The translations under genes were made by a program, and so were the position numbers. Below the pieces are notes generated by a model that was not told the origin of the DNA, ran no database searches, and saw only the letters and a list, made by a program, of their open reading frames with translations. A DNA stretch of 64,000 nucleotides, taken from Sphingobium sp. SYK-6 (lineage in GTDB: Bacteria > Pseudomonadota > Alphaproteobacteria > Sphingomonadales > Sphingomonadaceae). The stretch lies in the NCBI RefSeq assembly GCF_000283515.1, contig NC_015976.1, positions 3,318,501-3,382,500 of the forward strand, in the 5' to 3' direction. Positions within the stretch are counted from its first letter, which is position 1. Every line of letters begins with the position of its first letter. Shown here one piece after another: positions 47,187-64,000 of the stretch.

Positions 47187-49763
47187 TCAGAAGGAGATTG
47201 CCGCCGTCAGACCCACGCTGCGCGGGCGCGTCACCAGCGTGGTGAACACCGGCTGGTTGCGGGTGTGACCCAGATTGATCATCGGCGCGACGTTGAAGAT
47301 GTTGTTCACGTAGAGCGACAGGTCCAGATCGCCGAGTTCGATGCCAGCCCGGCCATTGACGATCGTGTAGGCCTTGTTGACCGGCTGGTTGGGATCATAG
47401 TTGATCGAGCCCGGGTCGGTATTGCCGGTACGACCTTCCTTGCTGCGATAGGTGTAATCGGCGCGGACATAATAGGTCTTGTCGGCGATCGGATAACGGA
47501 AGTCGCCGGAGAGCGTGACCGTCCAGGGCGAACCGGAGGATGGCAGGACCGAACCACCCGTGTAGAGCGTGCGACCGTTGATGATGGTGTCGTCGTCGAA
47601 CGTGGCATCGGTATAGCCGACATTCGCCATCAGGGTCAGTTCGCGCACCGGCTTCAACACCGCCTGCAGATCGAAACCCTGGCTCGTCGCGGAGCCGAGA
47701 TTGGCGGTGAGCGACTGGAGGCACGTCTGCACCGAAACGGTTGACTGGATGTTCGACCATTTGATGTGGAAGACGCTGCCGTTCAGCTGAAGCGCGCCGC
47801 CGAACATGCGCGTCTTGGCGCCGGCTTCATAGGACCAGACCGAGTCCGAACCATAAGTCTGCGGCGAACTCGCCTGACCCTGGGCATTGACATAGCCAAG
47901 CTGCACCAGTTCCGGATTGCAATTGCCCGGCAGGGCGATCTGCGCGCCGCTGGGACGGAAGCCCTTGCTGACCGTCGCATAGACCATGGTGTCTCGCGTC
48001 GCCTGATAGGAGATGCCGAACTTCGGCGTGACGGCGGTATCCGAACCGGATGCCGAGCTGTTCAGATAGCGCGGCGTGAAGGGGCCCGTTCCCGGCTCAT
48101 ACTGGCCGACTGCGACCGCCGTGCAGGGCACGGTTCCGACACCGGTGCCGGGAACGCAGGCAAGGCCACGGGGCGCGTTCAGGTTGTTCGCCGGACCATC
48201 ATAGAAGGCGGTATATTCGATCTTGTTCTTGGAGACGCGCACGCCAGCCGTCACCTTGAGCCCTTCAAGCAGTTCATAGGTCGCATCCGCGAAGCCGGCG
48301 ATCTGCGTGTCGATCGCCTTGAAGTCCGACAGATAGCTGGACGTGCCGTTCAGCTGCGGAACGCCATAGAAGTTGATGAAAGCGCTGTAGCCGGGGCCGA
48401 ACGGCGCGCCGTCATTCCGGATACCGAACAGCGGATTGAGGAAAGGCAGGAAGTTGGTCTGCGAATTCTGGATCGCCTGCTGCTCGTTGCGCGAATAGAA
48501 ACCGCCCGCAACCCAGGTCAGCGGCCCGTCGCTCACCGATTGCAGCCGCACTTCCTGCGTCCAGTTGCGCTGCCGGTTGGACACGGTCGAGATCGCGACG
48601 TCACCCACATTGGGTGTCTGCCGCCCGGCATAGGAAACGGCGTAGATGTTGGTGTAATCGAGCGTCTGGCTCGTATCGCGCTTGAAGTAGGACGTGGTCG
48701 AGACCAGGTCCGCAAAACCCAGATCAGCCTCGATCTTGAGCGCCGGCATGATGAACTTGTCCCGCTGCGGCTCGCCCGAGTCGACGTCCAGCGGCAGGTG
48801 CGTCGCATCGATCGTCGGGTTCCAGCGCGGCGTTGCATAGTCCGCCGTTTCGAAGTTCGACATGGTGGGCCACACGTTCGGCGCAGCGTCCGGGGTGAAG
48901 AAGCTCTGATAATTGATCGACGGCGTGATGGTGATGGTCTCGGACGGCTTGAACGTCAGCGCGAGACGCGCCGCGAACGTGTCCGAGGAGTTCACGTCGG
49001 CCTTGTAGAGGCTGGTGTTGGTGAAACTGAGAGACTGCACGCCGAGCGCGCCGGTGGTATTGCGCACGACCGGCGTGCCGACCATCTTGTCGATGAAGCC
49101 GCCCTCGTGACGGAAATAGGCGCTGGCGCGAATGCCGATCTTGTCGGTGACCAGCGGGCCACCGATCGCGAACGCCGCTTCATAGCTTTCCTTGCCATTG
49201 GTCGTCGTCGAGAGGTCGCCGCGCGCAAGGCCGCTCCACTCGGTCACGCTCGGCTCGGGCTGGATGAAGCGGATCGTGCCGCCTTCCGAACCGGCGCCGA
49301 AGAGAGTGCCCTGCGGACCACGCAGCACCTCGACACGCTCCAGATCGAACAGCGCCGGATACATGATCGACGAGGCGACGCCGAGCGAACGGACCTGAAT
49401 GGGCGTATCGTCGATATAGACGCCAATCGTCGAGGCGCCGGCACCCGAGGAGATGCCGCGGATGGAGACGTTGCTGACGCCAAGGCCACCGCGACGCAGC
49501 GATACGCCCGGCGTCATGCGTGCCAGATCCTCGACATTGCGAAGGCCCTGCTTCACCAGTTCATTCTGCGTGAACGCCTGAACGCTGACCGGAACCTTCG
49601 AGAGCGTCTCGCTCTTGCGGGTCGCGGTGACAACGATCTCGCCGCCGCCATCAGCCTCGTCGGCGGGCGAGTCCTGCGCCTGCACGGGCATCGCGGAGAC
49701 GGCGATCATGAGAGAGAGCGCCATTCTCGCGACGCCAGTGTTCAACAGGTCAAAATGCCGCAT
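47187..49763 (-). CDS. TonB-dependent receptor of amidohydrolase/GABA cluster
   Basis: The 858-residue product has a signal peptide (cut after VQA), a TonB-box-like EIVVTATRKSE, a plug domain (NVEDLARMTPGVSLRRGG, then EVLRGPQGTLFGAGSEGG in part: LRGPQGTLFG) and a barrel ending in SVGLTAAISF. It has the features of the sphingomonad receptor expansion with wide cargo range. Divergent from a LysR gene and just upstream of the gabT operon, it probably imports the cluster's substrate. Confidence 0.92.
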   Translation of the reverse strand: MRHFDLLNTGVARMALSLMIAVSAMPVQAQDSPADEADGGGEIVVTATRKSETLSKVPVSVQAFTQNELVKQGLRNVEDLARMTPGVSLRRGGLGVSNVSIRGISSGAGASTIGVYIDDTPIQVRSLGVASSIMYPALFDLERVEVLRGPQGTLFGAGSEGGTIRFIQPEPSVTEWSGLARGDLSTTTNGKESYEAAFAIGGPLVTDKIGIRASAYFRHEGGFIDKMVGTPVVRNTTGALGVQSLSFTNTSLYKADVNSSDTFAARLALTFKPSETITITPSINYQSFFTPDAAPNVWPTMSNFETADYATPRWNPTIDATHLPLDVDSGEPQRDKFIMPALKIEADLGFADLVSTTSYFKRDTSQTLDYTNIYAVSYAGRQTPNVGDVAISTVSNRQRNWTQEVRLQSVSDGPLTWVAGGFYSRNEQQAIQNSQTNFLPFLNPLFGIRNDGAPFGPGYSAFINFYGVPQLNGTSSYLSDFKAIDTQIAGFADATYELLEGLKVTAGVRVSKNKIEYTAFYDGPANNLNAPRGLACVPGTGVGTVPCTAVAVGQYEPGTGPFTPRYLNSSASGSDTAVTPKFGISYQATRDTMVYATVSKGFRPSGAQIALPGNCNPELVQLGYVNAQGQASSPQTYGSDSVWSYEAGAKTRMFGGALQLNGSVFHIKWSNIQSTVSVQTCLQSLTANLGSATSQGFDLQAVLKPVRELTLMANVGYTDATFDDDTIINGRTLYTGGSVLPSSGSPWTVTLSGDFRYPIADKTYYVRADYTYRSKEGRTGNTDPGSINYDPNQPVNKAYTIVNGRAGIELGDLDLSLYVNNIFNVAPMINLGHTRNQPVFTTLVTRPRSVGLTAAISF

Positions 49764-51275: not shown

Positions 51276-52136
51276 ATGTCGGCGACCCTCGAAGGCAGGA
51301 TTTCGGGCTCTTTCAATGCCGGCGCCGCGGGCATTCGCTGGGCTCGAATAGCGACCGGAAATGACATCTTCTACGCCACGCTTGAAGGAAACGTCGCTCT
51401 GCCTGTCGATGGCACGCCCTTTGGCGAATGGCGCCACGCAGGCGCATCGTTTGATCTGAACAAAGTCAGACTGCTGCCACCCGTCATCCCGACCACCTTC
51501 TATGCCTGCGGCATCAATTATACCGGCCATGCTCATGCCTGCTCGGCCGAATTCGACCGACCGCTGGAGAGCTTCCTGCCCTCTCGACCGCAAATCGGCT
51601 ATCGCGCGCAAAGCGCTATCATCGCGTCGGGAGAAACCATTGTGCTCCCTGCAGACGCACCCGACAATATCCAGTGTGAGGGCGAACTCGCAGTCGTGAT
51701 CGGCAAGCCGGCCCGGAATGTCCGTGCGCGCGACGCGCTGGATTTCGTGCTCGGCTACACGATCGGAAACGATGTGAGCATCCGGGACTGGCAATTTACC
51801 GACCGAACATTCTGGCGCAGTAAGAACAGCGATACGTTCAAGCCTCTGGGGCCCTGGATTGTCACGGGCCTCGACGTCGCCGACATGACGACACGCGTCA
51901 GTGTCAATGGAAAGGTAACCGAGCAGTTCGCGACGGCCAATATGCTTTTCAGTGTCGCCGACTATATCGAAGCGATCACCGAATATATAACGCTTCAGCC
52001 TGGCGATGTGATCATCATGGGAACCGACGGGCACAGCCCCCGCATCGCGCATGGCGACACGATCGAGATTGCCATCGAGGGAATAGGCGCATTGTCCAAC
52101 CCCGTTGTTCGCGCCGAGCCCGTCAATCGTCGATAA
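51276..52136 (+). CDS. fumarylacetoacetate-hydrolase-family enzyme
   Basis: The 286-residue protein has an FAH C-terminal domain: YACGINYTGHA at the domain start, the acidic metal ligands in CEGELAVVIG, GYTIGNDVSIRDWQ, and FKPLGPWIVTG, TDGHSP near the end. Family members hydrolyse or decarboxylate 2-oxo acids after aromatic ring cleavage. ATG 51276 follows GGAG at 6 nt; the frame starts upstream at 51198 with a non-conserved part. It may act in the catabolic route of the cluster to its right. The 3' end overlaps the convergent GST gene by 14 nt. Confidence 0.9.
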   Translation: MSATLEGRISGSFNAGAAGIRWARIATGNDIFYATLEGNVALPVDGTPFGEWRHAGASFDLNKVRLLPPVIPTTFYACGINYTGHAHACSAEFDRPLESFLPSRPQIGYRAQSAIIASGETIVLPADAPDNIQCEGELAVVIGKPARNVRARDALDFVLGYTIGNDVSIRDWQFTDRTFWRSKNSDTFKPLGPWIVTGLDVADMTTRVSVNGKVTEQFATANMLFSVADYIEAITEYITLQPGDVIIMGTDGHSPRIAHGDTIEIAIEGIGALSNPVVRAEPVNRR

Positions 52137-52734
52137 TGGGTGCCGCGAGTGCCGAGGGCCTGGCTTCGAACTCACGCTGCCAGTTCGCAAGGGCGGGATG
52201 GGCCGCTTGCCACTGACGGTCACCGAACCGGAAATCGGCGTAGGCCAGCGCACATCCAATCGCGATATGCCCCAGGTCGAAACGCGCCATCCCGAGCGCC
52301 GCGATCTCCTCCTCCAGCACCGCCAGGGCCCGATCGAGCTTGACAGCGAATGCTGCAACATGGGCATCCGAACGGATCGCCTCCGGCCGCAATTGTTCGC
52401 CGCGCCAGGCGATCATGAGATCGAGCATGCCGTCGCCCAGCGCTTGCCAGCGCAGCGTGTCATAATATCCTTCATCGCGACGCAGGAACGACGAGCCTGG
52501 CGAGAGCCCGACCAGAAACTCGCAGATCACGCGGGAGTCGAAGAGCGCTCGACCATCTTCGAGGACGAGCGTCGGTATCTTGTTGAGCGGATTGTCCGCC
52601 ATGATGGCAGGATTGGGTTGTGTGGTGACGGCGACCGAACGAACACGATCAATCCGGGAATACAGACCAAGCTCGTGCGCGAGGATGACGACCTTTCGCA
52701 CGTAAGGCGAGCGCGGCGACCAGTGCAGGCGCAT
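52123..52734 (-). CDS. glutathione S-transferase family protein
   Basis: The 203-residue protein has an N-terminal thioredoxin-like GST domain (LHWSPRSPYVRKVVILAHE, with SPYVRK near the glutathione-activating site) and NPLNKIPTLVLEDG, and an all-helical C-terminal domain ending in the FEARPSALA pattern. In sphingomonads GSTs open ether or thioether bonds or detoxify electrophiles; which is unknown here. It lies 5 nt after the GntR gene on the same strand and was likely co-transcribed. Confidence 0.92.
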   Translation of the reverse strand: MRLHWSPRSPYVRKVVILAHELGLYSRIDRVRSVAVTTQPNPAIMADNPLNKIPTLVLEDGRALFDSRVICEFLVGLSPGSSFLRRDEGYYDTLRWQALGDGMLDLMIAWRGEQLRPEAIRSDAHVAAFAVKLDRALAVLEEEIAALGMARFDLGHIAIGCALAYADFRFGDRQWQAAHPALANWQREFEARPSALAAPIIDD

Positions 52735-52739
52735 GAGCG

Positions 52740-53483
52740 TCAGCGCAGCTTGACTTCGAACCGAACCACGTCGCCGCGGTAGGTGCTCTCGACCGACAGG
52801 ACCAGCAGACCATTTTCATCGATCGCTTCGCGATGAAGATGCGCGACCGGTGCATTGAGCGGAATCTTGAGCAGGGATGCAGTGAGCGGATCGGCCGCCC
52901 CGATCGTCAGGATCTGGCTCGCCGAACAGAGCTTGACGCCCGGCGTTTCGGCAAGGAGCCGCAGGGCCGTCTTGCTGTGGACATGCTCCTCTTCGATGCT
53001 CGATCGCAGGGTTTCCGCGATATAGATGTCGGCGAACATGAAAGGCGCCCCATGTCGTGAATGAAGACGGCGCAAATGGCGATAGGTGGGCGCTCGGGTT
53101 GCCGTGTCATGGGCGATATGGAGCGCCTCGTCGTCCGCCTGGTCAGACAGCAATTCCATCTCTGCGTCCTGGGTCGGCCGCAACAGGCCTGACCAGTCGG
53201 TCCCGACGGAGCACCACAAGGCTTCCTGCGGCTTTTTGACAACGAAGGTTCCCTTGGCGCGAAACCGCTCGATCAAGCCCTCGTCGGCCAGCAAATCCAT
53301 CGCCTGGCGAATGGTAGCCCGGGCCACACCACATTCGCTTGCCAGGTCGTCGATGATCGGCAGTCGGGTACCTACCGGCCATTGTCCGGACTCGATGCGC
53401 TGCCGGAACAGCGCTGCGAGCTGGATATAACGCGAGACCGAGCTTCGATTGAGATCTTCGGCGATGTTTGCAATCTGGTTCAA
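52740..53483 (-). CDS. GntR/HutC-family regulator with UTRA domain
   Basis: The 247-residue protein has a GntR winged-helix at residues 16-84 (YIQLAALFRQRIESGQW, then ECGVARATIRQAMDLLADEG, shortened as GVARATIRQAMD) and a UTRA effector domain from about residue 95. It starts at TTG 53483, as no in-frame ATG precedes the HTH. Its effector is probably a small carboxylate or sugar-like catabolite. It likely represses the nearby GST, FAH or TonB receptor genes. Confidence 0.9.
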   Translation of the reverse strand: MNQIANIAEDLNRSSVSRYIQLAALFRQRIESGQWPVGTRLPIIDDLASECGVARATIRQAMDLLADEGLIERFRAKGTFVVKKPQEALWCSVGTDWSGLLRPTQDAEMELLSDQADDEALHIAHDTATRAPTYRHLRRLHSRHGAPFMFADIYIAETLRSSIEEEHVHSKTALRLLAETPGVKLCSASQILTIGAADPLTASLLKIPLNAPVAHLHREAIDENGLLVLSVESTYRGDVVRFEVKLR

Positions 53484-53593
53484 TTCAACAGACCTTCACG
53501 GCAGCCCAGGAAGCTTGATTCGATGCAGGCCGGTGAAGTCATGTATTCCCCGGCCTGCAATCTTGTAATGTGGCTGATGCTCAAGCACCAGCG

Positions 53594-56452
53594 TTAGAAC
53601 CTGGCCCTGACGCCTGCCGCATAACGCCGCCCCAGCACATCATAGTAGGGGGACGTCGCCGTTTGCGGGGCAGCCACGCCATTGGTCGTCACCGGCGGAT
53701 CATTGTCGAACAGATTGTCGACCTTGAGAAACACTGCAAAAACATCGTTCAGATCGTAGTCGGCACTGGTGTTCACATAAAAGCGGCCACCCACCCGATT
53801 ATCGTTGATGTCGATGCCTTCGACGAAGGTCGCGTCACGCTTACCACCCTGCACCCAGCGAAGCTGCGTGTTGAGCGTGAGCGGACCGTCCCGGTAGATG
53901 GTATTGAGGTTGACGCGCCAATGTGGAGCGCCGCCTCCTTGCACCTGCCCCGCGCGATCGATTGTGACCCCGCTGGACGTTGTCGCCAGCTTGCCCACAT
54001 AGGTGCCGAGCAGCCGGAAGCTGATATTGCCGTTCCAGTTCTCCGAGATATTGGTGAGACCGGTGCGGTATGCGACCTCAATGTCGAGGCCCTGCGTTTT
54101 CACCTCGTCGGCATTGAAACGGACCGCCGCCACCGAGGTAATGGCATTGCTTACCGGATCGCGCGTGACGCCGCTGCAGAGATTGGTCTGTTTAAGGATG
54201 TAGCATCCATCAACCACCTGCTGAGCCGCCAGCAGCGAGATCGCGCCACTGATCGAGATATCATAATAATCGATGGAAAGCTGCAGCCCCGGAAGGAAGC
54301 CTGGCGACAGCACGACACCCGCCGTCCAGCTGTCTGCCTTTTCCGGAACGAGATCGGGATTACCCCCCGAAGACCAGTTGGTGGAAATATTCTGATTGGT
54401 GAGCGGATCGATGATCTGCCCGGGGTTCGATCCTTGCGACTGGAAAAGCTCGTTGATATTTGGCGCCCGGATATCGCGCGACCGCGTCGCCCGCACTCGA
54501 ACGGCGTCGTTGAGAACATAATTGAGACCGATCTTCCAGGTCGTGACCCCACCACTGATCGTATAGTCGGTGTAGCGCAGCGCAGCATTAAGATCGAGGC
54601 TTCTGGCGAACGGCAGATCGGCAAGCAGGGGCACGAGCGTTTCCACATAACCTTCGCGAACCGACTGAGCCCCGGACAAGGGCTGGGGATTGAGGACACG
54701 CCAGTCTCGCGCCGCCGAGGTCGCATCCACGGTTCCCTCTGTCGCGTCTCGCCGATATTCACCGCCAAAAGCGAGATGGACGTCGCCCGCCCAGTTCTTG
54801 AGCAAGGTTCCCTCGATATTGAAGGCAGCGTCGTGCTGCGTTTGGGTCTGCAGCAACTGCATGGTGCCAGTGATATAGTCGACAGCCGATTGCGAGATCG
54901 AATTCGGCCCGAACACATTCGCAGGCACGCAACCATTATTGGGGTTGGTCAGGGTCGATCGACACTTGATCGTGCCGGTGGCCGGATCGAGCACCGCATC
55001 GATGGCTGCGAGCCAGCGTGACTGGATGCGGTTATTGAAGATTCGATAATTATATTTGTTGTCAGCATACTGATAATAGGCGCTCCAGCGCCAGTTGCTG
55101 CCGATACTGCCTTCAACGCCCGCCGCGTAGCGTTTCACATCGTAAATGGAATCGGCAATGTTGAATCCCTGCTCCAGTGTCGCGCGTCCAAACCGGAAAC
55201 TGGTAATATTGTTGTCGATCATCGCTTGTCGGATGGAGGCCGGCAGAAACGCATTGTCGCGCTGGATCGTAAGAGACCCGCTATCATAGTTGGGCGTGAT
55301 ATCCGTCCTTTGGTGCGACCGCGAATAAAGGCCTTCAACCCAGAGCTTGACCGTGTCAGTCAAGTCATAGTCCGCCCGGCCATAAAGGGATCTGCGATCG
55401 ATATCCGGGGTCAAATTTCCGGTCGGCGAGAAGGTCGATCCATCTCCCCCGACCATGAACACCGCACCGACATACTGACCATAATTGAACGGAATCGGCG
55501 TCCCCCCGGGGCCGAACTGGGTCCCGCGCAGCGGCCCCGCCACGATGACGCCGCCATAGCTCATCTGGGAATGGCGCGTGTTGGGGGTGAGGATCAGACG
55601 TGGCTGCCCGTTGTTGGAGCCGGCGACATACAAGGGATTCGCAAACTGAGCCCACTCGTGTTGCCCCCATTTGCGCGATGATTGGTCGTTCACTCCGTCG
55701 CTGTAAAAGACGCTCCCGGCCAGCACGAAATGCCCTCGCCCTCCGTCGAAATCATCTCCCCAGGTCAACGAGCTGACGCGCTCGAAGCTGTCGCCGCGGC
55801 TTGTCAGGCCAAGCTGGCCATAGGCTTCGACGCCCTGAAAATCCTTCTTCAGAAACAGATTGACTGCACCGGCAACAGCGTCCGATCCATATGCCGCCGA
55901 TGCACCACCTGTCACGATCTCGACGCGCTGGATAAGCGACACCGGCAGAATGTTAACGTCCGTTGTCCCTTCCGGACTGGTCGGGGCCATGCGCCGGCCA
56001 TCGACGAGCAACAAGGTCCGCTGAGCGCCAAGGCCGCGCAGGTTGAAGGTGCTGCCGCCAGGCGGCGAGGAAACCATCTGCGTTGCCTGATTCGGGATCA
56101 GCGCCGGAATATCTTCCTGAAGCTGCTGCACGCTGTACTTGCCGGTCAGGGCCAACTGCTCTGACGAGACGGCCGTCACGGGTGTGGGCGAGGAGAAGCC
56201 GGTTATCCGGGATCCCGTAATGACGAGATCCTGATTCGACGCTGCGCCATTGTCGCTGGCCTCAGCAACTTCGATGCCCTCCCCTTGCTGCTCGGCAGAG
56301 CCGGCCTGTGCGTGCGCGTTCCCGGCAAATCCCATCAGGCAAGCGACAACCAGCCCCAGCCGACTGGCGGAAGTGCGCCATCCGACGCTGTGCGCGGTAA
56401 AGGGTAACTGTGGCGCCATGCGGGCAGCAGCAGGATCGAGTCTCAGGATCAA
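53594..56452 (-). CDS. TonB-dependent receptor of NTF2 cluster
   Basis: The 952-residue product starts at TTG 56452, since GGGGAGGA lies at perfect spacing while the in-frame ATG at 56419 has none. It has a long signal peptide (cut near AHAQ), a TonB-box-like DLVITGSRI, a plug with GGSTFNLRGLGAQRTLLLVDG (in part: FNLRGLGAQRTL) and a barrel ending in YAAGVRARF. It belongs to the larger receptor class common in sphingomonads. Its place beside the NTF2 and GST genes suggests uptake of the same substrate. Confidence 0.93.
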   Translation of the reverse strand: MILRLDPAAARMAPQLPFTAHSVGWRTSASRLGLVVACLMGFAGNAHAQAGSAEQQGEGIEVAEASDNGAASNQDLVITGSRITGFSSPTPVTAVSSEQLALTGKYSVQQLQEDIPALIPNQATQMVSSPPGGSTFNLRGLGAQRTLLLVDGRRMAPTSPEGTTDVNILPVSLIQRVEIVTGGASAAYGSDAVAGAVNLFLKKDFQGVEAYGQLGLTSRGDSFERVSSLTWGDDFDGGRGHFVLAGSVFYSDGVNDQSSRKWGQHEWAQFANPLYVAGSNNGQPRLILTPNTRHSQMSYGGVIVAGPLRGTQFGPGGTPIPFNYGQYVGAVFMVGGDGSTFSPTGNLTPDIDRRSLYGRADYDLTDTVKLWVEGLYSRSHQRTDITPNYDSGSLTIQRDNAFLPASIRQAMIDNNITSFRFGRATLEQGFNIADSIYDVKRYAAGVEGSIGSNWRWSAYYQYADNKYNYRIFNNRIQSRWLAAIDAVLDPATGTIKCRSTLTNPNNGCVPANVFGPNSISQSAVDYITGTMQLLQTQTQHDAAFNIEGTLLKNWAGDVHLAFGGEYRRDATEGTVDATSAARDWRVLNPQPLSGAQSVREGYVETLVPLLADLPFARSLDLNAALRYTDYTISGGVTTWKIGLNYVLNDAVRVRATRSRDIRAPNINELFQSQGSNPGQIIDPLTNQNISTNWSSGGNPDLVPEKADSWTAGVVLSPGFLPGLQLSIDYYDISISGAISLLAAQQVVDGCYILKQTNLCSGVTRDPVSNAITSVAAVRFNADEVKTQGLDIEVAYRTGLTNISENWNGNISFRLLGTYVGKLATTSSGVTIDRAGQVQGGGAPHWRVNLNTIYRDGPLTLNTQLRWVQGGKRDATFVEGIDINDNRVGGRFYVNTSADYDLNDVFAVFLKVDNLFDNDPPVTTNGVAAPQTATSPYYDVLGRRYAAGVRARF

Positions 56453-56495
56453 TTTATCCTCCCCAGAAATACGAGCACTCTTCGGTGTCTATAGG

Positions 56496-56549
56496 CCTAT
56501 AAGTCATGTTTATGTCCTTTGTCAAAAGGTCAATAATATGACTTTTATG
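56496..56549. promoter_or_regulatory. large imperfect palindrome before TonB receptor
   Basis: Two 22-bp arms, 56496-56517 and 56528-56549 (inverted), match at 16 of 22 positions, sharing AAGTCAT in the middle and TG-CC at the end, around a spacer TTTGTCAAAA. It lies 44-97 bp upstream of the receptor start. It could be an operator for a dimeric regulator such as the GntR protein nearby, or a transcription-termination hairpin of the upstream gene; the AT-rich nature favours the operator. Confidence 0.5.
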
Positions 56550-56558
56550 GCGTGGCGT

Positions 56559-58538
56559 TTAGAGCGCTTTTTCCGGACAGCGTCTCATAGGGGACGCCGG
56601 CAGGCGCCCGGAGACGGGATTGGCATAGTGAAAGCAAATCGGGCTGACGCTCGGAAAGACCGCATAGCCGTCTTCCTTCAACGGAAAATCCGGTGGGAAA
56701 TCGCGCAAGAGCTTGTCGGGAGGCGGAGCCGCACGACGGCCGAAGTCGGTCGGGACGCGGGCCCAGCCTTCGGCATAGCCAGGCGACCGCCAGAGATGCC
56801 GGATGAGAACTTCGCTGAACCGCCAGGTGCCGTCTTCGATGCGCGCGCTGTCCTCATACAGGCCTGCCGTCAGGGAGCCCGGACGGGAATGATTACTATT
56901 GAACTGAAGGAGACGTGCGCGCAGCCTGGCGGACGTCCCATCTGCATTGCTGTGAATCACGGGCTGAACCCGCAGATGCATCGGAACTGAACCGCGCGGC
57001 CGTCGAAGCGGGCCGTAGCGTGCTTCCTGCATGGCCCCAATCCGTTCCGGTCCGATATAATATCCTGCGGCGGGCGAGAGGCGCACGCCATCGGCGGTGA
57101 ACAGGTCTGCCATGTCGGCCCATTGGAAATCGTCGATCCAGTTCCCCAGCGCGCCTGAGATATTCTCGACCGCGTCGTAGCCGATGGCTCGGGCGAGGTC
57201 GCGACGGGGGTCGATCGCCGAAGCGTCAGCCTGAGGCGCCGCCGCCATCCCCTCCGCGGGATCTTCAACCGATCGTGACCCGGCTGGATAAGCGATGGGC
57301 GCTGCCGTCACGGGGTGGCGGTAATGGAATGCGGGTATATCTGACGGGCCGGAGGCAGGAGAGGTCCGATCTGGCGCAAAGGCCGGACCGACCTGGGGTT
57401 CCGGCAACCAGCTCCTGGACCAGCCCTGAAAATAGTCGGTGCGCATCTGGGGGAAGATACGCATGGCCGCAATCCGCCATTTTCCTTCGCGGCGGACATA
57501 TCTGTTTTCGAACGTGGCAACGGTCCAATAGGCATCGGCTCCGTTCTTGCCCAACATGCCGAATTCCAGGCCGCGGGCGCGTGCTTCGTTGCCGCCGGGC
57601 GAGATCGTGACGATCATGTTGAGTTGCAAACGATCGTTGACCTCTCCCTCGCGCAGGCCTGGAGGGCCATCGCGCTCCAGGCCGCGACGGATGCTGGCTG
57701 GTCCGTCCCAAGCGCCGACGCCGGCAATCTCGACGGAGGCGTCATTCTCAAACAGATCGGCAACATCGTCCCACATCTTGCGGTCGACATAATAGCCATA
57801 GGCATTTTGAAGATTGCGCACGTCGTCCTCGGCATTGAGCGCGCTGATGCGCCTTGCCAGCGTTGCCTTGTCGGGCACTGCGCTGCGGCGCTTCGCCGCT
57901 GATGCATCCCCCCGCGGGATCGGCGCGCCGGCCTGCTCGGGCGTGTAATGATAGGGAACAATCCCCAAGTCTTCGGTGACGTTCGTCCAGCCCCGATCAT
58001 AGGGTCCGGCAAACTGCGGGAAGTAGTGAAGCGTGGCGATGCGCCAGACACCGTTCTGCCGCACATATTCATTTTCCATGATGCCGCCGGCCCATTCGGC
58101 ACTTCCGCCGCGGCGGCCCCACATGGTGACGACGTGCCAACGCCCTCTGGCATGGTTGCCGTCCGGCGCCATCGTGACCACCGGCGTCATCGCCAGCTCG
58201 ACACTGAGCGCTCCCTCGGCCGGCCCCGTCGCGGCATCCCCGAGGCGCGCCGTCAGATGAGCCCTTATCGCGGCGCGCCCCGTCACCGTCTCTTCGCCGA
58301 AGATCGCTTTTGCATCCTTGGCGTAGAGCTGCACCGCGTCATCCCAGAGACGATACTGGATGAACTGTGCATGGGCGGTCTGGAGGCGTTTGACCGCCCG
58401 CAGCGACTCTGCCTGATCGAGGTCGTGGGCGAGCTGTCGGGCTTCGCTGGTATTGGCAGGCGTCCGAGTCGAGCCTGGTGCACCAAGTCCGAATAGGACG
58501 GCCAGAGCGGTAGCCACCGGCAGCATCTTGTGGATCAT
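56559..58538 (-). CDS. secreted three-domain NTF2/SnoaL-like protein
   Basis: The 659-residue product starts at ATG 58538 (AAGGA upstream) with a signal peptide. It has three NTF2/SnoaL-like domains: near residues 40-190 (RLWDDAVQLYAKDA), 215-370 (RKMWDDVADLFENDA) and 440-620 (DFQWADMADLFTADG). Each has the family's paired Asp/Trp near the first helix. A PYHY or FHYRHP motif follows domains 1 and 2 and FHYANPVSGR ends the protein with a Cys. NTF2-fold enzymes include cyclases, dehydratases and lyases. Fusion of three is rare. Function is unknown. Confidence 0.82.
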   Translation of the reverse strand: MIHKMLPVATALAVLFGLGAPGSTRTPANTSEARQLAHDLDQAESLRAVKRLQTAHAQFIQYRLWDDAVQLYAKDAKAIFGEETVTGRAAIRAHLTARLGDAATGPAEGALSVELAMTPVVTMAPDGNHARGRWHVVTMWGRRGGSAEWAGGIMENEYVRQNGVWRIATLHYFPQFAGPYDRGWTNVTEDLGIVPYHYTPEQAGAPIPRGDASAAKRRSAVPDKATLARRISALNAEDDVRNLQNAYGYYVDRKMWDDVADLFENDASVEIAGVGAWDGPASIRRGLERDGPPGLREGEVNDRLQLNMIVTISPGGNEARARGLEFGMLGKNGADAYWTVATFENRYVRREGKWRIAAMRIFPQMRTDYFQGWSRSWLPEPQVGPAFAPDRTSPASGPSDIPAFHYRHPVTAAPIAYPAGSRSVEDPAEGMAAAPQADASAIDPRRDLARAIGYDAVENISGALGNWIDDFQWADMADLFTADGVRLSPAAGYYIGPERIGAMQEARYGPLRRPRGSVPMHLRVQPVIHSNADGTSARLRARLLQFNSNHSRPGSLTAGLYEDSARIEDGTWRFSEVLIRHLWRSPGYAEGWARVPTDFGRRAAPPPDKLLRDFPPDFPLKEDGYAVFPSVSPICFHYANPVSGRLPASPMRRCPEKAL

Positions 58539-58560
58539 GCATAGTTCCTTGTTCGGCAAT

Positions 58561-59352
58561 TTAGCGTGCGAGCGCAGATTCACATGTCCGCAGGTCGGGG
58601 CAGTAATGGGATGGCACGCGTCCGCTGACCGGGTTCCGATAATGGAACCACATGGGCTTCACCTCCGGATAGTGGACGAATGCCGGCCCCGGCGTGAATG
58701 CCCCCTCACGTACCGGCATCGCGGTCAGCGGGACATCAGGCGGCATTTGGTCGAGCATCTGCTGCATCATGGGCGGCGTCGTCAGCCGCCTCTTTTCGGT
58801 TATTGGCGCCACCCGTGCCCAGCCACCCTTCCAGCCATTGGACACGAAATAAGGTTCATCGATCGCGACGACCGAGAGCTTCCAGATTCCATCTTCAAGG
58901 ACCGCCGCATCATTGGGATACATGCCGTTCTTGACGGATCCCGCCTCGCCCCAATTGCTCGTGATATGAAAGAGGCGAGTGCGCAGATAGGCGGACTGTG
59001 CGTCGTCGGACACAGTGATGACAGGCTGCTCACGCAGATGGATACGGACGGAGCGGCGCGGCGAGGGCATGACTGACACTTGCAGGGTTTCAGCCGCACG
59101 GATGCGCGCGGGCCCGGCATAGAAGCCGACGAGGTATTTTTGCCGCCATCCGTCGACGGAGAACAGGCTGCTTTGAGAATCCCACTGGGCGTCGTCGATC
59201 CAGTTACCAAATGCGTTCGAGATATTCTCCACCGCTTCATAAGCGATCGAACGATCGAGTTGCCGCCGTAACGCGCTGATGTCATCCCCGGCATTTGCCA
59301 GGGTGGCGCTATTCAGAAGCGCCATGGCGCATATGAAGTTCAGGCACTTCAC
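58561..59352 (-). CDS. secreted single-domain NTF2-like protein
   Basis: The 263-residue protein is a paralog of the last domain of its downstream neighbour: AYEAVENISNAFGNWIDDAQW matches YDAVENISGALGNWIDDFQW (each given in part), and both end with WFHYRNPVSGR- or CFHYANPVSGR-type motifs. It has a signal peptide (cut near ANA). It starts at GTG 59352, overlapping the ABC-binding-protein stop as GTGA, so the two are coupled. Three cysteines near the end may form disulfides. Confidence 0.82.
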   Translation of the reverse strand: MKCLNFICAMALLNSATLANAGDDISALRRQLDRSIAYEAVENISNAFGNWIDDAQWDSQSSLFSVDGWRQKYLVGFYAGPARIRAAETLQVSVMPSPRRSVRIHLREQPVITVSDDAQSAYLRTRLFHITSNWGEAGSVKNGMYPNDAAVLEDGIWKLSVVAIDEPYFVSNGWKGGWARVAPITEKRRLTTPPMMQQMLDQMPPDVPLTAMPVREGAFTPGPAFVHYPEVKPMWFHYRNPVSGRVPSHYCPDLRTCESALAR

Positions 59353-60326
59353 GGCAGCACCCGCTGCGCCTCGCCGAGGAGGTCTACCGGAACAGTCAGT
59401 CCGAGCGCACGCGCCGCCGCGAGATTGAGCGTCATCGCGGCCGGCGGGCGGCGAACGGCCATGCTTCCTGGCGACTGCCCCTTGAGGATCGCATCCACAA
59501 CAATGGCCTGTTCGAACCAGATACGGTTAAAATCCGGGCCGAACGCGGCCACACCGCCCCCTTGCAGGACCGTCTCGACAAGTGACGCCGTGGGCAGGCC
59601 GTTGGCGAGAGCGAGCCCGCCGATCTTGCGGCCATTCATGCTGAACAGGGAGTGCGGTCCGACGACCATTGCCTGCATGCCGTCCGCCTTCATCTCTCGC
59701 ACCGCGCCTTCAAAGGCGTCGACGCTGCGCGCTTCATAGGGCCGGACCTCGATGCCGCTTTTGGCCCCCTCTGTCTGAAGCGCCCGCAGAGCGCCGGGGG
59801 CCGGGGCGTATGTTGGATTGTACAGCATGCCCACGCGCTTCAGCCCGGGCACCAGGCGGCTGAGCAAATCCAGTTCCCGCCTTTGGGTGTCGGCCGCGTC
59901 GGCAGTCCCGGAAAAGTCGCCGCCCGGCTGATCGAAACTGCCGGCGACACCAGCGCCTACAGGATCCAGCGACCAGAAGACGACAGGAACGGCCGACTTT
60001 ACCAACCTCTTTGCAACCGCAAGCGCCTGAGTGGATGTTGTATCGCCGGCGATGATAAGACGTGGCTTCAAAGCGACCAATTCGGCGGCTGCGCTCTCAA
60101 GGGCGTGATGATCGCGATTGGCGGCGCGGCGCACCCATATGATCGAGTCTGCATCGCGGCCCTGCGCGCCCAGTCCGGCCTTCAACCGTCCGAACAGCGC
60201 CGATTCGGGGCCCAGGTCAACGTTGTTGGTGAGAATCGCGATTGTCAGCTCGTTTGCCGCTTGCACTTGGGCAGCCAAGAAGGTGACCATGAGTGCGAAC
60301 AGGCATTTCAGGCCCCAACTCGACAT
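59349..60326 (-). CDS. orphan ABC transporter substrate-binding protein
   Basis: The 325-residue protein has a signal peptide (cut after VQA) and the ABC_sub_bind (PF04392/TrpX-like) pattern: two Rossmann-like lobes, with KPRLIIAGDTTST and AVPVVFWSLDPVGAG in the first and RVGMLYNPT in the second. No permease or ATPase gene is in the window. It is coupled to the NTF2-like gene. It may present a substrate to the NTF2 proteins, or partner with transporters encoded elsewhere. AGGAGGGG lies before ATG 60326. Confidence 0.86.
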   Translation of the reverse strand: MSSWGLKCLFALMVTFLAAQVQAANELTIAILTNNVDLGPESALFGRLKAGLGAQGRDADSIIWVRRAANRDHHALESAAAELVALKPRLIIAGDTTSTQALAVAKRLVKSAVPVVFWSLDPVGAGVAGSFDQPGGDFSGTADAADTQRRELDLLSRLVPGLKRVGMLYNPTYAPAPGALRALQTEGAKSGIEVRPYEARSVDAFEGAVREMKADGMQAMVVGPHSLFSMNGRKIGGLALANGLPTASLVETVLQGGGVAAFGPDFNRIWFEQAIVVDAILKGQSPGSMAVRRPPAAMTLNLAAARALGLTVPVDLLGEAQRVLP

Positions 60327-60351
60327 CTGCCCCTCCTTTATCCTATAAACC

Positions 60352-60429
60352 AGTCTTACGGTTTTTATGTCGTGTCAGCAAGGCTGTTTCTCCCGATGAG
60401 CAGCTTGACTCATTAAAAGCCATAAGACT
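60352..60429. promoter_or_regulatory. inverted repeat in divergent promoter region
   Basis: AGTCTTACGGTTTTTA at 60352-60367 and, inverted, AGTCTTATGGCTTTTA at 60414-60429 agree at 14 of 16 positions. They lie between the divergent ABC-binding-protein and MFS genes. The core TTATGG also occurs in the palindrome upstream of the TonB receptor at 56541-56550. It is a good candidate operator for a shared regulator. Confidence 0.45.
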
Positions 60430-60477
60430 ATCCTTTTATCACATCATGCGTGCTGCATCGCGGCTTAGGAGAGGGTT

Positions 60478-61833
60478 TTGACGAACGATGCGATCACGCC
60501 GAGAGACGCCTCCGGCTCGCAAGCGCCTTCGGCACGAACGCACCTCGTAGAGCCGGAGAACGATCTCCTGTATCGACGGGTGCTGTGGCGGATCATGCCT
60601 CTTCTCGTCATCTGCTACATCGTCGCATTCATCGATCGCTCGAATGTCGGGATTGCCAAGATCCAGTTCATGGGCGACCTCGGCTTCACCAACGCGCAAT
60701 ACGGATTCGGCGCGGGCATCTTTTATCTCGGCTATGTTCTGCTGGAGATTCCGAGCAATCAGTGGCTCGCAAAGATCGGCGCACGCATCACGATCCTGCG
60801 GATCATGATCTTCTGGGGAATCTGCTGCACGCTGATGGCGTGGATGTCCACCGCGCCTCATTTCTACGCGTTGCGCTTCTTGCTGGGCGCCGCCGAGGCT
60901 GGATTCTTCCCTGGCGTCCTGCTGTATCTCACTTTCTGGATCCCGGCGCGTCGGCGCGCACGGTTCAACGCCATCTTTCTGGCGGCCATTCCTGTGGCCG
61001 GGATGCTGGGAGGTCCGCTTGCCGGGCTCATCATGAGCGGAATGGATGGCGTTTGGGGATGGCGCGGCTGGCAATGGCTGTTCGTGCTCGAGGGTCTGCC
61101 AGCAATCCTTCTCGGGCTGGTCGCCTATGCGGTGCTCGACGACAAGCCATCCGACTGTCGCTGGCTTGCCGAGCATGAGCGTGCACAGATCATGGCTGAT
61201 GCCTCGGCCGATGCGCGAAAGCTCGGAGACGGCGCCCATGCCACCTTTGGCGCAGTGCTGGCTGATCCGGCCTTCTATGCGCTTGGACTGCTCGGTTTTG
61301 GTATCATGGTGAGCACGGGCGGCATTTTCTTCTGGCTGCCCACGATCATCGACAAGAGCGGTGTTGAGAATTTGCGCGATGTCGGATTGCTCTCGGCGCT
61401 GCCCTTCATCATCGCTGTCTTTTTCCAGTATTTCATCGCGCGCAGGTCGGACCGACTGCAGGAACGGCGCTGGCACACGTTGATCCCGGCGCTTGTCGGT
61501 GCCGTGGGGTGGTCACTCCTCCCTTTCGTCGCCCAGAATACCAGCCTGGCATTGATCGCGCTGGCGGTCGCGACAAGTGGCACATTCTCGGCGATGGGAC
61601 CTTTCTGGTCATTGCCTTCGACCATGCTGTCGGGGCCGGCAATGGCTGGCGGGATCGCGCTCGTCACGACGCTTGCCGGTCTTGGCAACTTCCTCAGTCC
61701 CATCCTCGTTGGCTGGCTGGTTGATAGAACCGGTTCGCTGGCAGCAGGACAATTCTACTTCGCCGGATTGCTGGCGCTTGGTACGGCGGGCATCCTGGTC
61801 AGCCAGCGCAGATTTTCATCGGGGACCGATTGA
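60478..61833 (+). CDS. MFS transporter, ACS family
   Basis: The 451-residue transporter has twelve membrane segments and the ACS-family pattern: IVAFIDRSNVGIAKIQ in TM1, NAQYGFGAGIFYLGYVLLEIPSN in part (FGAGIFYLGYVLLEIPSN) and GAAEAGFFPGVLLYL. This group imports organic anions such as tartrate, 4-hydroxyphenylacetate or galactonate. It starts at TTG 60478, with AGGAGAGG just upstream; no in-frame ATG is near. It would carry the product of periplasmic steps into the cytosol. Confidence 0.9.
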   Translation: MTNDAITPRDASGSQAPSARTHLVEPENDLLYRRVLWRIMPLLVICYIVAFIDRSNVGIAKIQFMGDLGFTNAQYGFGAGIFYLGYVLLEIPSNQWLAKIGARITILRIMIFWGICCTLMAWMSTAPHFYALRFLLGAAEAGFFPGVLLYLTFWIPARRRARFNAIFLAAIPVAGMLGGPLAGLIMSGMDGVWGWRGWQWLFVLEGLPAILLGLVAYAVLDDKPSDCRWLAEHERAQIMADASADARKLGDGAHATFGAVLADPAFYALGLLGFGIMVSTGGIFFWLPTIIDKSGVENLRDVGLLSALPFIIAVFFQYFIARRSDRLQERRWHTLIPALVGAVGWSLLPFVAQNTSLALIALAVATSGTFSAMGPFWSLPSTMLSGPAMAGGIALVTTLAGLGNFLSPILVGWLVDRTGSLAAGQFYFAGLLALGTAGILVSQRRFSSGTD

Positions 61834-61893
61834 GGAGCCGGATCGTCTTCCGGCCCGATCATCCCCCCCCCCTCGACCCTGGAGAAGAATGAC

Positions 61894-62670
61894 ATGCCAT
61901 TTGTCACCCATGACGGCGTCCGCTTGCACTGGAAACTGGAGGGCGCGTCCGGCAAACCGCCAATCGTCCTCCTCAACTCGATCGGGACCGATATGGGCAT
62001 GTGGGATCGCGCCATGCCTTTCTTGCTGGAGGATTTTCTCGTCCTTCGGATCGATGCGCGTGGACATGGAGCATCGGACGCATCGCCCAGTGACTATGAC
62101 CTTCTAAGCCTGGCGGGCGACGTGGTGGCGGTCATGGATGCGGCCGGCATCGAGCAGGCCGTGATCGCCGGCGTATCCCTTGGCGGAATGATCGCCATGG
62201 AACTGGCACTGGCGAGGCCAGAGCGTGTATCTGGCCTCGCCCTCATCTGCACGACCGCCACGACGCATGCTCAGATGTGGAGCGACCGGATTCAACGCGT
62301 GCGTACCGAGGGCATGGCCAGCATCGTTGAAACGGTGATGGGGCGTTTCCTCAGCCCCGAATTCATCGAGACGTCTCCGCAATATGCCGAAACGATCCGC
62401 AGATCCTTCCTTTCCACGCTCCCGGAGGGCTACGCGGGCTGTGGCGCCGCGATCCGGGACATGGCCCTCGTCGATCGCTTGGACGAGATCGGCGCACCTG
62501 CTTTGGTGGTCATCGGCACAAGGGATATTTCGACACCTCTCGCGGGAAATGGCGAACTGCTGCTCGCCAGGATCGCCGGCGCAAAGCTCGCCCAGGTTTC
62601 AGGAGCCCATATTTCTCCGATCGAAGCGCCTGAGGAAATCGCGAAGGTCCTGGCCGATCATTTCGGGTGA
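61894..62670 (+). CDS. alpha/beta hydrolase, enol-lactonase-like
   Basis: The 258-residue protein has an alpha/beta-hydrolase core: GWDRAMPFL-like WDRAMPFL, RIDARGHGASD, the nucleophile elbow GVSLGG (Ser about residue 96), the acid in GTRDISTP and His in GAHISPIEAP. It is closest in pattern to 3-oxoadipate enol-lactonase (PcaD), an enzyme of the beta-ketoadipate route, but other ester or C-C hydrolases fit as well. It follows the MFS gene by 60 nt and shares its terminator. Confidence 0.88.
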   Translation: MPFVTHDGVRLHWKLEGASGKPPIVLLNSIGTDMGMWDRAMPFLLEDFLVLRIDARGHGASDASPSDYDLLSLAGDVVAVMDAAGIEQAVIAGVSLGGMIAMELALARPERVSGLALICTTATTHAQMWSDRIQRVRTEGMASIVETVMGRFLSPEFIETSPQYAETIRRSFLSTLPEGYAGCGAAIRDMALVDRLDEIGAPALVVIGTRDISTPLAGNGELLLARIAGAKLAQVSGAHISPIEAPEEIAKVLADHFG

Positions 62671-62697
62671 CCTGGCCTAACGATAACGCAGCAGCGC

Positions 62698-62719
62698 GCA
62701 CCCGGCGCGGGTGCCTTTT
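62698..62719 (+). terminator. terminator after MFS-hydrolase genes
   Basis: A GCACCC / GGGTGC stem with a GGCGC loop is followed by CTTTTA. It lies about 30 nt after the hydrolase stop. Confidence 0.75.
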
Positions 62720-62852
62720 ATCTCGTTCTGACGACAGGCTGCCAAAGCGCGGCCCGACGGCCGGATGGCTGAGCGGCTGCATGTTGCCCGTGTCAGGCTT
62801 GCCTGGAGAAAAATCAAATCCGCTTGCCCTCGGTGAATAACCATATTATCAG

Positions 62853-62874
62853 TTACCGGAATTTTTTTCGGTAA
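62853..62874. promoter_or_regulatory. TTACCG / CGGTAA inverted repeat before HD-domain gene
   Basis: Perfect 6-bp arms with a 10-nt AT-rich loop (gaattttttt) lie 16-37 nt before the ATG of the HD-domain gene. The position fits an operator or a 5' hairpin affecting translation. It contains no ribosome site itself. Confidence 0.4.
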
Positions 62875-62889
62875 TAGGATTGAGCGAGC

Positions 62890-63729
62890 ATGGAGCAGGA
62901 TCCGTTACGGTCGAGCAATTTGAAACTGCCTGTCCTGGATCGGCGCAATTTCATAACTGCTTTGGGTGGCGCAGCCGCCGTGGCGAGCATGAGCGGTGAA
63001 GCCAAAGCTGACGCCTTGGAAATGCATCTGAACGATGCCCTCAATTCATCGAAAAAGACGTTTCCCTCGGTCGCTGAGGTCAACGCACAGATCAATACCC
63101 GCCCTTATCGTCGCGGCGTGGGAAAGCTGTTCGCCGGCCAGGAAGGCAATGTCGGTTACCTGCCGGCCATGCCCGCCAACCCGACCCTGATCGATTTCAT
63201 ACGGTTACGCCTCGATGGCTCCAGGGATCATTGCCTCCAGAGCGCTCATCTGGCGAAAAGCCGCGGCATGGATGAGGAAGTCGTCCTCGCCTGCCTGCTG
63301 CATGATCTGCCAATGTCGCTGATGCGCAGCGAACATGGCTTCTGGAGCGCGCAGCTCTTCGAGCCCTATGTCTCCGAACGGACGACCTTCGCCATCCGGC
63401 ATCACGCGTCCCTGCGGTTCTTCCCCGACGAGGACGCCGGATACGAATACCCGGACCTGTACCGCAACATGTATGGCGAGGATTATGTCCCGCCCCCGCA
63501 TATGCAGGCCGAGTACAAGATGGTTCGCGCCCATCGCTGGTACATGGCCCCGCGTCTCGTCACCGTGAACGACCTCTATTCGTTCGATCCGGACGTGAAG
63601 GTCGAACTGGGGGAATTCGAGGATATTATCGGTCGCCATTTCCGCCAGCCGAAGGAAGGTCTCGGCCTCGACGGCAGTCATGTCGCGCACATGTGGCGCA
63701 CGATCGCCAATCCTGATTCACCCTTATAA
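62890..63729 (+). CDS. Tat-exported HD-domain protein, diiron-oxygenase-like
   Basis: The 279-residue protein has a twin-arginine signal (DRRNFITALGGAAAVAS, cut near AKA) and an HD-type domain. Candidate metal ligands are H114 (RDHCLQSAH), H138-D139 (LLHDLP), H149 (SEHG), H171/H172 (IRHHAS) and D228 (VNDLY). The spacing H-24-HD and a final Asp about 56 residues after the last His resembles mixed-valence diiron HD oxygenases such as PhnZ, rather than HD phosphohydrolases. Export folded by Tat fits a metal cofactor. Substrate is unknown; the neighbours suggest catabolism. Confidence 0.82.
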   Translation: MEQDPLRSSNLKLPVLDRRNFITALGGAAAVASMSGEAKADALEMHLNDALNSSKKTFPSVAEVNAQINTRPYRRGVGKLFAGQEGNVGYLPAMPANPTLIDFIRLRLDGSRDHCLQSAHLAKSRGMDEEVVLACLLHDLPMSLMRSEHGFWSAQLFEPYVSERTTFAIRHHASLRFFPDEDAGYEYPDLYRNMYGEDYVPPPHMQAEYKMVRAHRWYMAPRLVTVNDLYSFDPDVKVELGEFEDIIGRHFRQPKEGLGLDGSHVAHMWRTIANPDSPL

Positions 63730-63774
63730 CGACCGGTGCGCGCCACGGACCATCTTTCCAGTGGTGAATGAGGC

Positions 63775-64000
63775 ATGATGCGCTTCCTCGCAGCATTCTG
63801 TGCGTCCCTGGCATTTCTGTCCGACAGTCCTGCGGGCGCGGATCCCGCACGGAGCATGCTCGCGCGGGATATCTCGATCACGGAAAGCCTGCGGCGCGTC
63901 CGACTGCTTCAGGATAGCTATGCCCAATATGCTCAGTACGGCCTGTGGGACGAAATCGGCGACCTGTTCGCGCCGGAGGGCAGATTCATATTCGACGGGC
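63775..64000 (+). CDS. secreted NTF2-like protein, partial at right edge
   Basis: Only the first 75 codons are present before the window ends. The product starts with a signal peptide (cut near AGA) and continues SLRRVRLLQDSYAQYAQYGLW and DEIGDLFAPEG, the same motif as domain 1 of the three-domain protein at 56559-58538 (LRAVKRLQ, QYRLWDDAVQLY). It follows the HD gene by 45 nt and is co-oriented. A second ATG at 63778 is an alternative start. Whether it has one or three domains cannot be told. Confidence 0.8.
   Translation, partial: MMRFLAAFCASLAFLSDSPAGADPARSMLARDISITESLRRVRLLQDSYAQYAQYGLWDEIGDLFAPEGRFIFDG

What the first reader, a model, noticed from the sequence alone, without database searches (positions are those of the whole stretch)
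51276..64000. Candidate undescribed catabolic island with exported NTF2 and HD enzymes
A three-domain NTF2-like protein, a single-domain paralog, a further NTF2-like gene at the edge, an orphan substrate-binding protein and a Tat-exported HD protein are all secreted and adjacent. With a TonB receptor, MFS importer, FAH, GST and lactonase-like enzymes around them they suggest a pathway whose first chemistry occurs in the periplasm. NTF2-fold lyases are known in sphingomonad degradation of lignin-type dimers, but those are not exported multi-domain fusions as far as I know.
Basis: partly seen in the sequence, partly recalled or inferred. Interest (0 to 1): 0.75.

Follow-up and report, generated by a model that had tools for sequence, protein, structure and literature searches.

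The report
Exported three-domain NTF2 proteins, catabolic cluster
A bacterium related to Sphingobium carries nine copies of a probably exported protein made of three enzyme-like domains resembling a known lignin-fragment-splitting enzyme, suggesting that it starts breaking down plant-type aromatic compounds outside its cytoplasm.

Summary
56559-58538 encodes an exported protein with three SnoaL_4/NTF2 domains (TRI1), in an operon-like run with a one-domain paralogue and an orphan binding protein. The "NTF2 gene at the edge" is a second three-domain protein (TRI2, 697 aa). The genome holds nine in four clusters; relatives occur sparsely in several phyla. A confident model (pLDDT 91.4) matches LdpA, the lignin-dimer formaldehyde lyase, best. 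Domain 3 keeps the histidine aligned with LdpA H97, domain 2 an invariant Tyr-x-Asp; domain 1 has lost both. Synteny supports a periplasmic catabolic module: TonB receptors, amidohydrolases and binding proteins recur; two relatives fuse a binding protein to the three domains. The Tat HD protein and the PcaD-like gene are not part of the conserved module (0 of 75 loci each). Substrate and reaction are unproven; an exported LdpA-like lyase on aromatic compounds is my best guess. New variant of a known kind.

The parts
51276..52136 (+). FAH-family hydrolase/isomerase (PF01557 + PF10370)
   Evidence: homologues of 58-63% identity lie in 2 of 75 three-domain loci, L130 and L135
52123..52734 (-). 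glutathione S-transferase
   Evidence: 46-47% homologues in 2 of 75 loci, L130 and L135; a clustered relative in the genome's own cluster at 3.03-3.04 Mb
52740..53483 (-). GntR/UTRA repressor
   Evidence: 56% homologues in 2 of 75 loci, both Brevundimonas, L131 and L136
53594..56452 (-). TonB-dependent receptor
   Evidence: homologues in 10 of 75 loci
56559..58538 (-). TRI1: exported three-domain SnoaL_4 (NTF2-fold) protein
58561..59352 (-). one-domain SnoaL_4 protein with leader, a stand-alone version of TRI domain 3 (48% identity to TRI1 439-656), keeps the aligned His
   Evidence: GTG start overlaps the binding-protein stop
59349..60326 (-). orphan substrate-binding protein with leader, PF04392
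   Evidence: at E <= 1e-15 the 298 family genomes hold only 2 matches, both in this genome and both beside a TRI gene; also in loci L133 and L135
60478..61833 (+). MFS importer, HpaX/galactonate type
   Evidence: homologues in 2 of 75 loci, L133 and L151
61894..62670 (+). PcaD-type 3-oxoadipate enol-lactonase
   Evidence: 0 of 75 loci, so probably not part of the conserved module
62890..63729 (+). HD protein with Tat-like leader, nearest to PhnZ/TmpB HD oxygenases; six candidate metal-ligand residues kept
   Evidence: 0 of 75 loci
63775..64000 (+). TRI2: second exported three-domain SnoaL_4 protein (697 aa; runs on to genome position 3384368)

Best explanation
TRI1 and TRI2 are exported single-chain enzymes of the LdpA type working in the periplasm on a plant- or lignin-type aromatic compound that a TonB receptor brings through the outer membrane. 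Shown by computation: three NTF2 domains; signal-peptide-like N-terminus; LdpA as the closest solved structure; conserved polar residues in domains 2 and 3; recurring catabolic and exported neighbours. Inferred: domains 2 and 3 are catalytic, domain 1 is structural or binding; the orphan binding protein holds or delivers the substrate or product instead of feeding an ABC importer; the chemistry is cofactor-free acid/base lysis (dehydration, deformylation or retro-aldol type, as in LdpA); products cross the inner membrane by the MFS carrier and are finished by GST, FAH and lactonase-type amidohydrolases in the cytoplasm.
Against: No substrate is known and no activity was tested. In TRI1 and TRI2 domain 2 has Arg, not His, at the LdpA H97 position, although domain 2 is the one that superposes on LdpA. 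Identity to LdpA is only 25-29%. Actinobacterial L148, L152 and L182 lack a leader by eye, so export is not essential to the reaction. NMT1 proteins also sit in catabolic clusters without TRI. FAH, GST, GntR, binding-protein and MFS homologues recur in only 2 of 75 loci each. Another cluster of this genome carries a 3,5-dioxohexanoate-type BKACE, which points to phloroglucinol- or polyketide-like rather than lignin-dimer substrates.
Confidence: 0.5

Rival explanations
1. The three-domain protein is an exported lyase/hydrolase, but for polyphenol or polyketide-like compounds (phloroglucinol-type, acylated rings), not for lignin dimers.
For: BKACE near TRI genes in this genome's cluster at 1.31-1.33 Mb passes the 3,5-dioxohexanoate:acetyl-CoA model (466.6 against 430 bits), as does L194's (468.2); in Clostridium such an enzyme cleaves the 3,5-dioxohexanoate formed in phloroglucinol breakdown (PMC10470551, passages); HpaI-type aldolases, Fe-ADH and lactonase-like amidohydrolases recur. 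SnoaL itself is a polyketide cyclase (recalled).
Against: No BKACE is in the window's cluster; LdpA is the closest structure by a clear margin. No phloroglucinol reductase or hydrolase was looked for, so their presence is open.
Confidence: 0.25
2. The protein is not an enzyme but a periplasmic binding or solubilising scaffold for a hydrophobic aromatic, with the binding protein as co-receptor.
For: NTF2-type folds also serve as binders (one search lists designed cortisol and vitamin-D binders); domain 1 has lost the polar residues; fused to a binding protein in L134 and L187 and to CBMs in L193.
Against: Near-invariant Tyr/Asp/Asn in domain 2 and Asp/His/Gln in domain 3 across several phyla; forms without a leader exist next to importer-like genes in Actinomycetota, odd for a periplasmic carrier.
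Confidence: 0.15
3. The secreted HD protein belongs to the pathway as an exported diiron oxygenase acting with the NTF2 proteins.
For: Next to TRI2 on the same strand (45 bases between the stop at 63729 and the ATG at 63775); a Tat leader suits a cofactor-loaded enzyme; H114, H138, D139, H149, H172 and D228 invariant in 16 of 16 family members; best relatives PhnZ and TmpB oxygenases.
Against: 0 of 75 three-domain loci carry it; no three-domain profile hit in 15 HD loci; only 2 of the 15 genomes with a close homologue have TRI.
Confidence: 0.2
4. Ordinary juxtaposition: a paralogue-rich family of NTF2 proteins scattered among unrelated catabolic genes.
For: 58 SnoaL_4 places in this genome; no one of the 75 loci holds homologues of all the window's genes.
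Against: Three of four own clusters share GST, LigI-like amidohydrolase or PF04392 binding-protein relatives beside TRI; fusions and repeated binding-protein pairing in other genera.
Confidence: 0.12

Closest known systems
LdpA / PcfL gamma-formaldehyde lyases of sphingomonads (PDB 8abt, 8abu, 8abv)
   Different: The solved LdpA chains are of 251-263 residues and match one domain, with no leader seen in the aligned part; here three domains in one exported chain, and Arg at the H97 position of domain 2 in TRI1
BaiE bile-acid 7-alpha-dehydratase, scytalone dehydratase, LinA
   Same: Same fold; cofactor-free elimination (recalled)
PhnZ / TmpB HD-domain oxygenases
   Same: HD protein keeps six candidate metal-ligand positions
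   Different: 25.1 bits against a cut-off of 214.6; Tat-like leader; no phosphonate gene recognised beside it
TonB receptor plus MFS carrier for lignin dimers in SYK-6 (DdvT, DdvK)
   Same: TonB receptor plus MFS carrier with catabolic genes
   Different: Known here only from an abstract and a reference list; I recall no exported NTF2 protein or binding protein in that system

Membership tests
SnoaL_4 (PF13577) | score over the curated cut-off | tested here: met
   TRI1 215.4 bits, three stretches; one-domain paralogue 36.1; cut-off 24
LdpA/PcfL lyase | fold of LdpA | tested here: met
LdpA/PcfL lyase | His at the H97 position of NaLdpA | tested here: inconclusive
   His in domain 3 (62/64) but Arg in domain 2 of TRI1; His in domain 2 in 32/64
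LdpA/PcfL lyase | the other active-site residues of LdpA | not tested
   the LdpA paper is not held; PcfL is said to share eight of eleven (PMC11323797, passage)
LdpA/PcfL lyase | single-domain, unexported protein | tested here: not met
   three domains and a hydrophobic leader
LdpA/PcfL lyase | cofactor-free deformylation of a dimer | not testable with these tools
   needs enzyme assay
ABC importer with substrate-binding protein | permease and ATPase genes alongside | tested here: not met
   none among the ten proteins scanned at 51276-63726
PhnZ-type HD oxygenase | six metal ligands | tested here: met
   H114, H138, D139, H149, H172, D228 in 16 of 16; only H114/H138/D139 are covered by the alignment to PhnZ, the rest is matched from recall
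PhnZ-type HD oxygenase | curated model score | tested here: not met
   TIGR03276 25.1 bits against 214.6
PhnZ-type HD oxygenase | fold of the whole protein | tested here: inconclusive
   single-sequence model pLDDT 38.7, unusable
PcaD 3-oxoadipate enol-lactonase | TIGR02427 cut-off | tested here: met
   268.8 against 255.85

The most novel reading that the evidence does not exclude
The three-domain protein is a covalently joined pseudo-trimer of an LdpA-like lyase, exported to the periplasm (or, in some actinobacteria, to plant polymer surfaces by CBMs), where a dedicated orphan binding protein, sometimes fused to it, acts as its substrate-delivery subunit: a new extracytoplasmic first stage of bacterial aromatic-oligomer catabolism, run in parallel by up to nine paralogues in one genome.
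Probability: 0.25. Interest if true: 0.82.

Novelty: new variant of a known kind. Interest (0 to 1): 0.6.

Why it matters
A review counts 62 NTF2 homologues in SYK-6 and says that such enzymes' substrates are unknown while more lignin-related pathways surely await discovery (PMC12997858, passages). A recognisable exported subfamily with its own partners gives a defined set of genes to test, and would move the first chemistry outside the cytoplasm, where compounds too large for inner-membrane carriers could be cut. The binding-protein fusion suggests a use for orphan binding proteins other than feeding an ABC importer.

Tried and rejected
HD as a member of the module: rejected as unsupported. 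HD fold from a single sequence: pLDDT 38.7, not searched. Weak hits of the HD profile to other PDB chains, E 0.06 and worse, were set aside as chance. L190 looked like a TRI-esterase fusion, but two undetermined bases (12112-12113) lie in the reading frame near the junction, so it is not counted; the esterase is a neighbour, as in this genome's own cluster at 1.31 Mb (46% identity). Recent tandem amplification of the nine copies: rejected, the tree scatters them (nine changes, shuffled mean 8.7). Plasmid spread: no match in the plasmid collection at E 1e-20.

Limits. The window's binding protein (PF04392) is of another family than the NMT1 ones that are fused, so the fusion evidence is by analogy. 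Neighbour counts use ORFs called by a base-composition script, not a trained gene finder; loci overlap in part and some genomes give several. TonB clusters other than the window's, ALDH and SDR clusters were named by eye; the others by one representative each. 68 of 75 loci gave a near-full-length three-domain row, 82 rows, plus nine own copies = 91. The TonB/amidohydrolase control (21 and 25 of 45 long TRI loci against 2 and 0 of 11 HD loci) used queries mostly drawn from TRI loci, so it favours TRI; 30 of 75 TRI loci under 18 kb and HD loci L092, L096, L101 and L103 were left out. Searches scored only 3-4 candidates a genome, so copy numbers elsewhere and the 7-of-21 count are lower bounds. 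Alignment A2 holds TRI1 and 63 of 76 listed relatives: 13 were left out by hand to thin the set, and six loci (L134, L178, L182, L187, L190, L193: fusions, truncated or long-start rows) before the list was made. Signal peptides were judged by hydrophobicity and eye only. LysR (0 of 75) and the first TonB receptor at 47187-49763 (6 of 75, 23-26% identity) do not belong to the module on this evidence. Print: ten full-text searches ran; those with SnoaL terms listed no paper whose title or abstract start describes a bacterial three-domain SnoaL protein; one search listed eight papers, none opened; most subscription papers are not held. The LdpA paper itself was not held.
Full report
What is there. 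The window lies at 3318501-3382500 of a 4.35 Mb, two-contig genome. Its genus contains Sphingobium xanthum NL9: same-genus genome G076 has a contig of 587,318 bases with a three-domain gene where the NL9 record of that length has one. On the minus strand, binding protein (PF04392), one-domain SnoaL_4, three-domain SnoaL_4 (TRI1), TonB receptor, GntR and GST follow each other with short gaps; the binding-protein stop overlaps the GTG of the one-domain gene and TRI1 has a good ribosome-binding site before ATG 58538. The gene cut by the window's edge is a second three-domain protein, TRI2, followed outside the window by a lactonase-like amidohydrolase.

More than chance. Pfam finds SnoaL_4 three times in TRI1 (E 2.5e-64). 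The genome has 58 SnoaL_4 places and nine three-domain proteins: 1312892 and 1316470, 1662316 and 1668459, 3035597, 3037749 and 3040495, 3375059 (TRI1) and 3382275 (TRI2). A tree of 91 family members scatters the nine over the family, so they are old paralogues. The full three-domain form is uncommon: 15 of 298 genomes of the family and 3 of 398 drawn from the phylum, at E <= 1e-60. A scan of genome contigs gave 75 loci in Sphingomonadales, Caulobacterales, Parvularculaceae, Steroidobacteraceae, Acidobacteriota, Myxococcota and Actinomycetota (lineages).

Export. Of 91 family rows 82 have a strongly hydrophobic leader. Of the nine others, two are fusions whose leader lies further upstream, one (L169) has a weaker leader by eye, three actinobacterial rows (L148, L152, L182) lack one by eye, L178 starts inside domain 1, and L139 and L202 are unclear. 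L148, L152 and L182 lie near importer-type genes (identified by my reading of the sequences, not by a profile search). So diderms as a rule export the protein and some monoderms do not, while Micromonospora (L165) and L193 do. L193 carries an Ig-like and three CBM_5_12 modules behind the three domains on DNA without undetermined bases, which puts that copy on a polymer surface outside the cell (inference).

Synteny. Clustering of neighbours, with representatives named by Pfam and NCBIfam or by eye, shows recurring amidohydrolases (29 of 75 loci), TonB receptors (24), AraC regulators (22), NMT1-type binding proteins (17), cupin-like proteins (15), Fe-alcohol dehydrogenases (14), ALDH (12), BNR-repeat proteins (11), HpaI-type aldolases (10) and BKACE (8) (counts). 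Some of the amidohydrolases and BNR proteins begin with twin-arginine-like leaders (by eye). In 12 loci the NMT1 gene lies directly before the three-domain gene on its strand, and in L134 and L187 the two are one reading frame. In 298 family genomes NMT1 matches lie 54-204 bp before a three-domain match at 7 of 21 places. Against exclusivity: other NMT1 places are in related catabolic clusters without a three-domain gene or elsewhere. The window's own binding protein is of another family, PF04392; its only two matches at E <= 1e-15 in the 298 genomes both lie beside three-domain genes of this genome. Window genes in the 75 loci: TonB receptor 10, FAH 2, GST 2, GntR 2, binding protein 2, MFS 2, PcaD-like 0, HD 0.

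The HD protein. Sixteen places of 190 bits or more in 15 of 298 genomes keep six candidate metal-ligand residues (16 rows). The nearest solved relatives are PhnZ and TmpB, HD oxygenases, and 16 of 16 members match the phosphonate HD-oxygenase model weakly, below its cut-off. No three-domain profile hit lies in 15 HD loci; one (L093) stands among ring-cleavage-type genes by my reading. The genome's own second copy and the 13 others whose N-termini I printed show no clear twin-arginine leader by eye, so export of the window's copy seems a local trait. It may be an exported diiron oxygenase recruited to this cluster; this is a guess.

How it most likely works, and what remains open. I propose that the TonB receptor admits an aromatic compound, the exported three-domain protein lyses it by LdpA-like acid/base chemistry with the binding protein as partner, and the MFS carrier passes products to GST, FAH and lactonase-type enzymes. 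Only the anatomy is shown. The substrate class is open: LdpA homology favours lignin-type dimers; the BKACE in this genome's other cluster, passing the 3,5-dioxohexanoate model, favours phloroglucinol-like products (PMC10470551, passages). LdpA and PcfL are described in PMC12997858 and PMC11323797 (passages), with no three-domain or exported form mentioned in those passages. That SnoaL-type enzymes such as LinA, BaiE and scytalone dehydratase are trimers is recalled; the pseudo-trimer idea was not tested.

Noticed in passing
L180, L183, L185, L188, L189: A PEP-utiliser protein of about 615 aa and a PPDK-N-like protein (by eye) of about 358 aa recur beside three-domain genes in Erythrobacteraceae and related MAGs, sizes like the two subunits of phenylphosphate synthase (recalled), with an amidohydrolase, a CoA-transferase and LigAB-like genes.
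   Followed up: partly
genome position 3013327-3019188 (L055): A one-domain SnoaL_4 protein without an obvious leader lies a few genes from a carotenoid-oxygenase/lignostilbene-dioxygenase-like gene (by eye), a candidate ordinary LdpA/PcfL pathway in the same genome.
   Followed up: no
L194:11819-12733 and 14 further loci: A family of about 305 aa whose representative has no Pfam or NCBIfam match at E 1e-4, cupin-like by weak PDB hits and by eye, recurs beside three-domain genes.
   Followed up: partly
L211:9027-10166 (genome 487 kb): An NMT1 homologue of the TRI-linked type sits behind ABC-transporter-like genes (by eye) in this genome, apart from any three-domain gene.
   Followed up: no
genome position 1330432-1332742 (L051): A run of three further one-domain SnoaL_4 genes with leader-like N-termini.
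   Followed up: no
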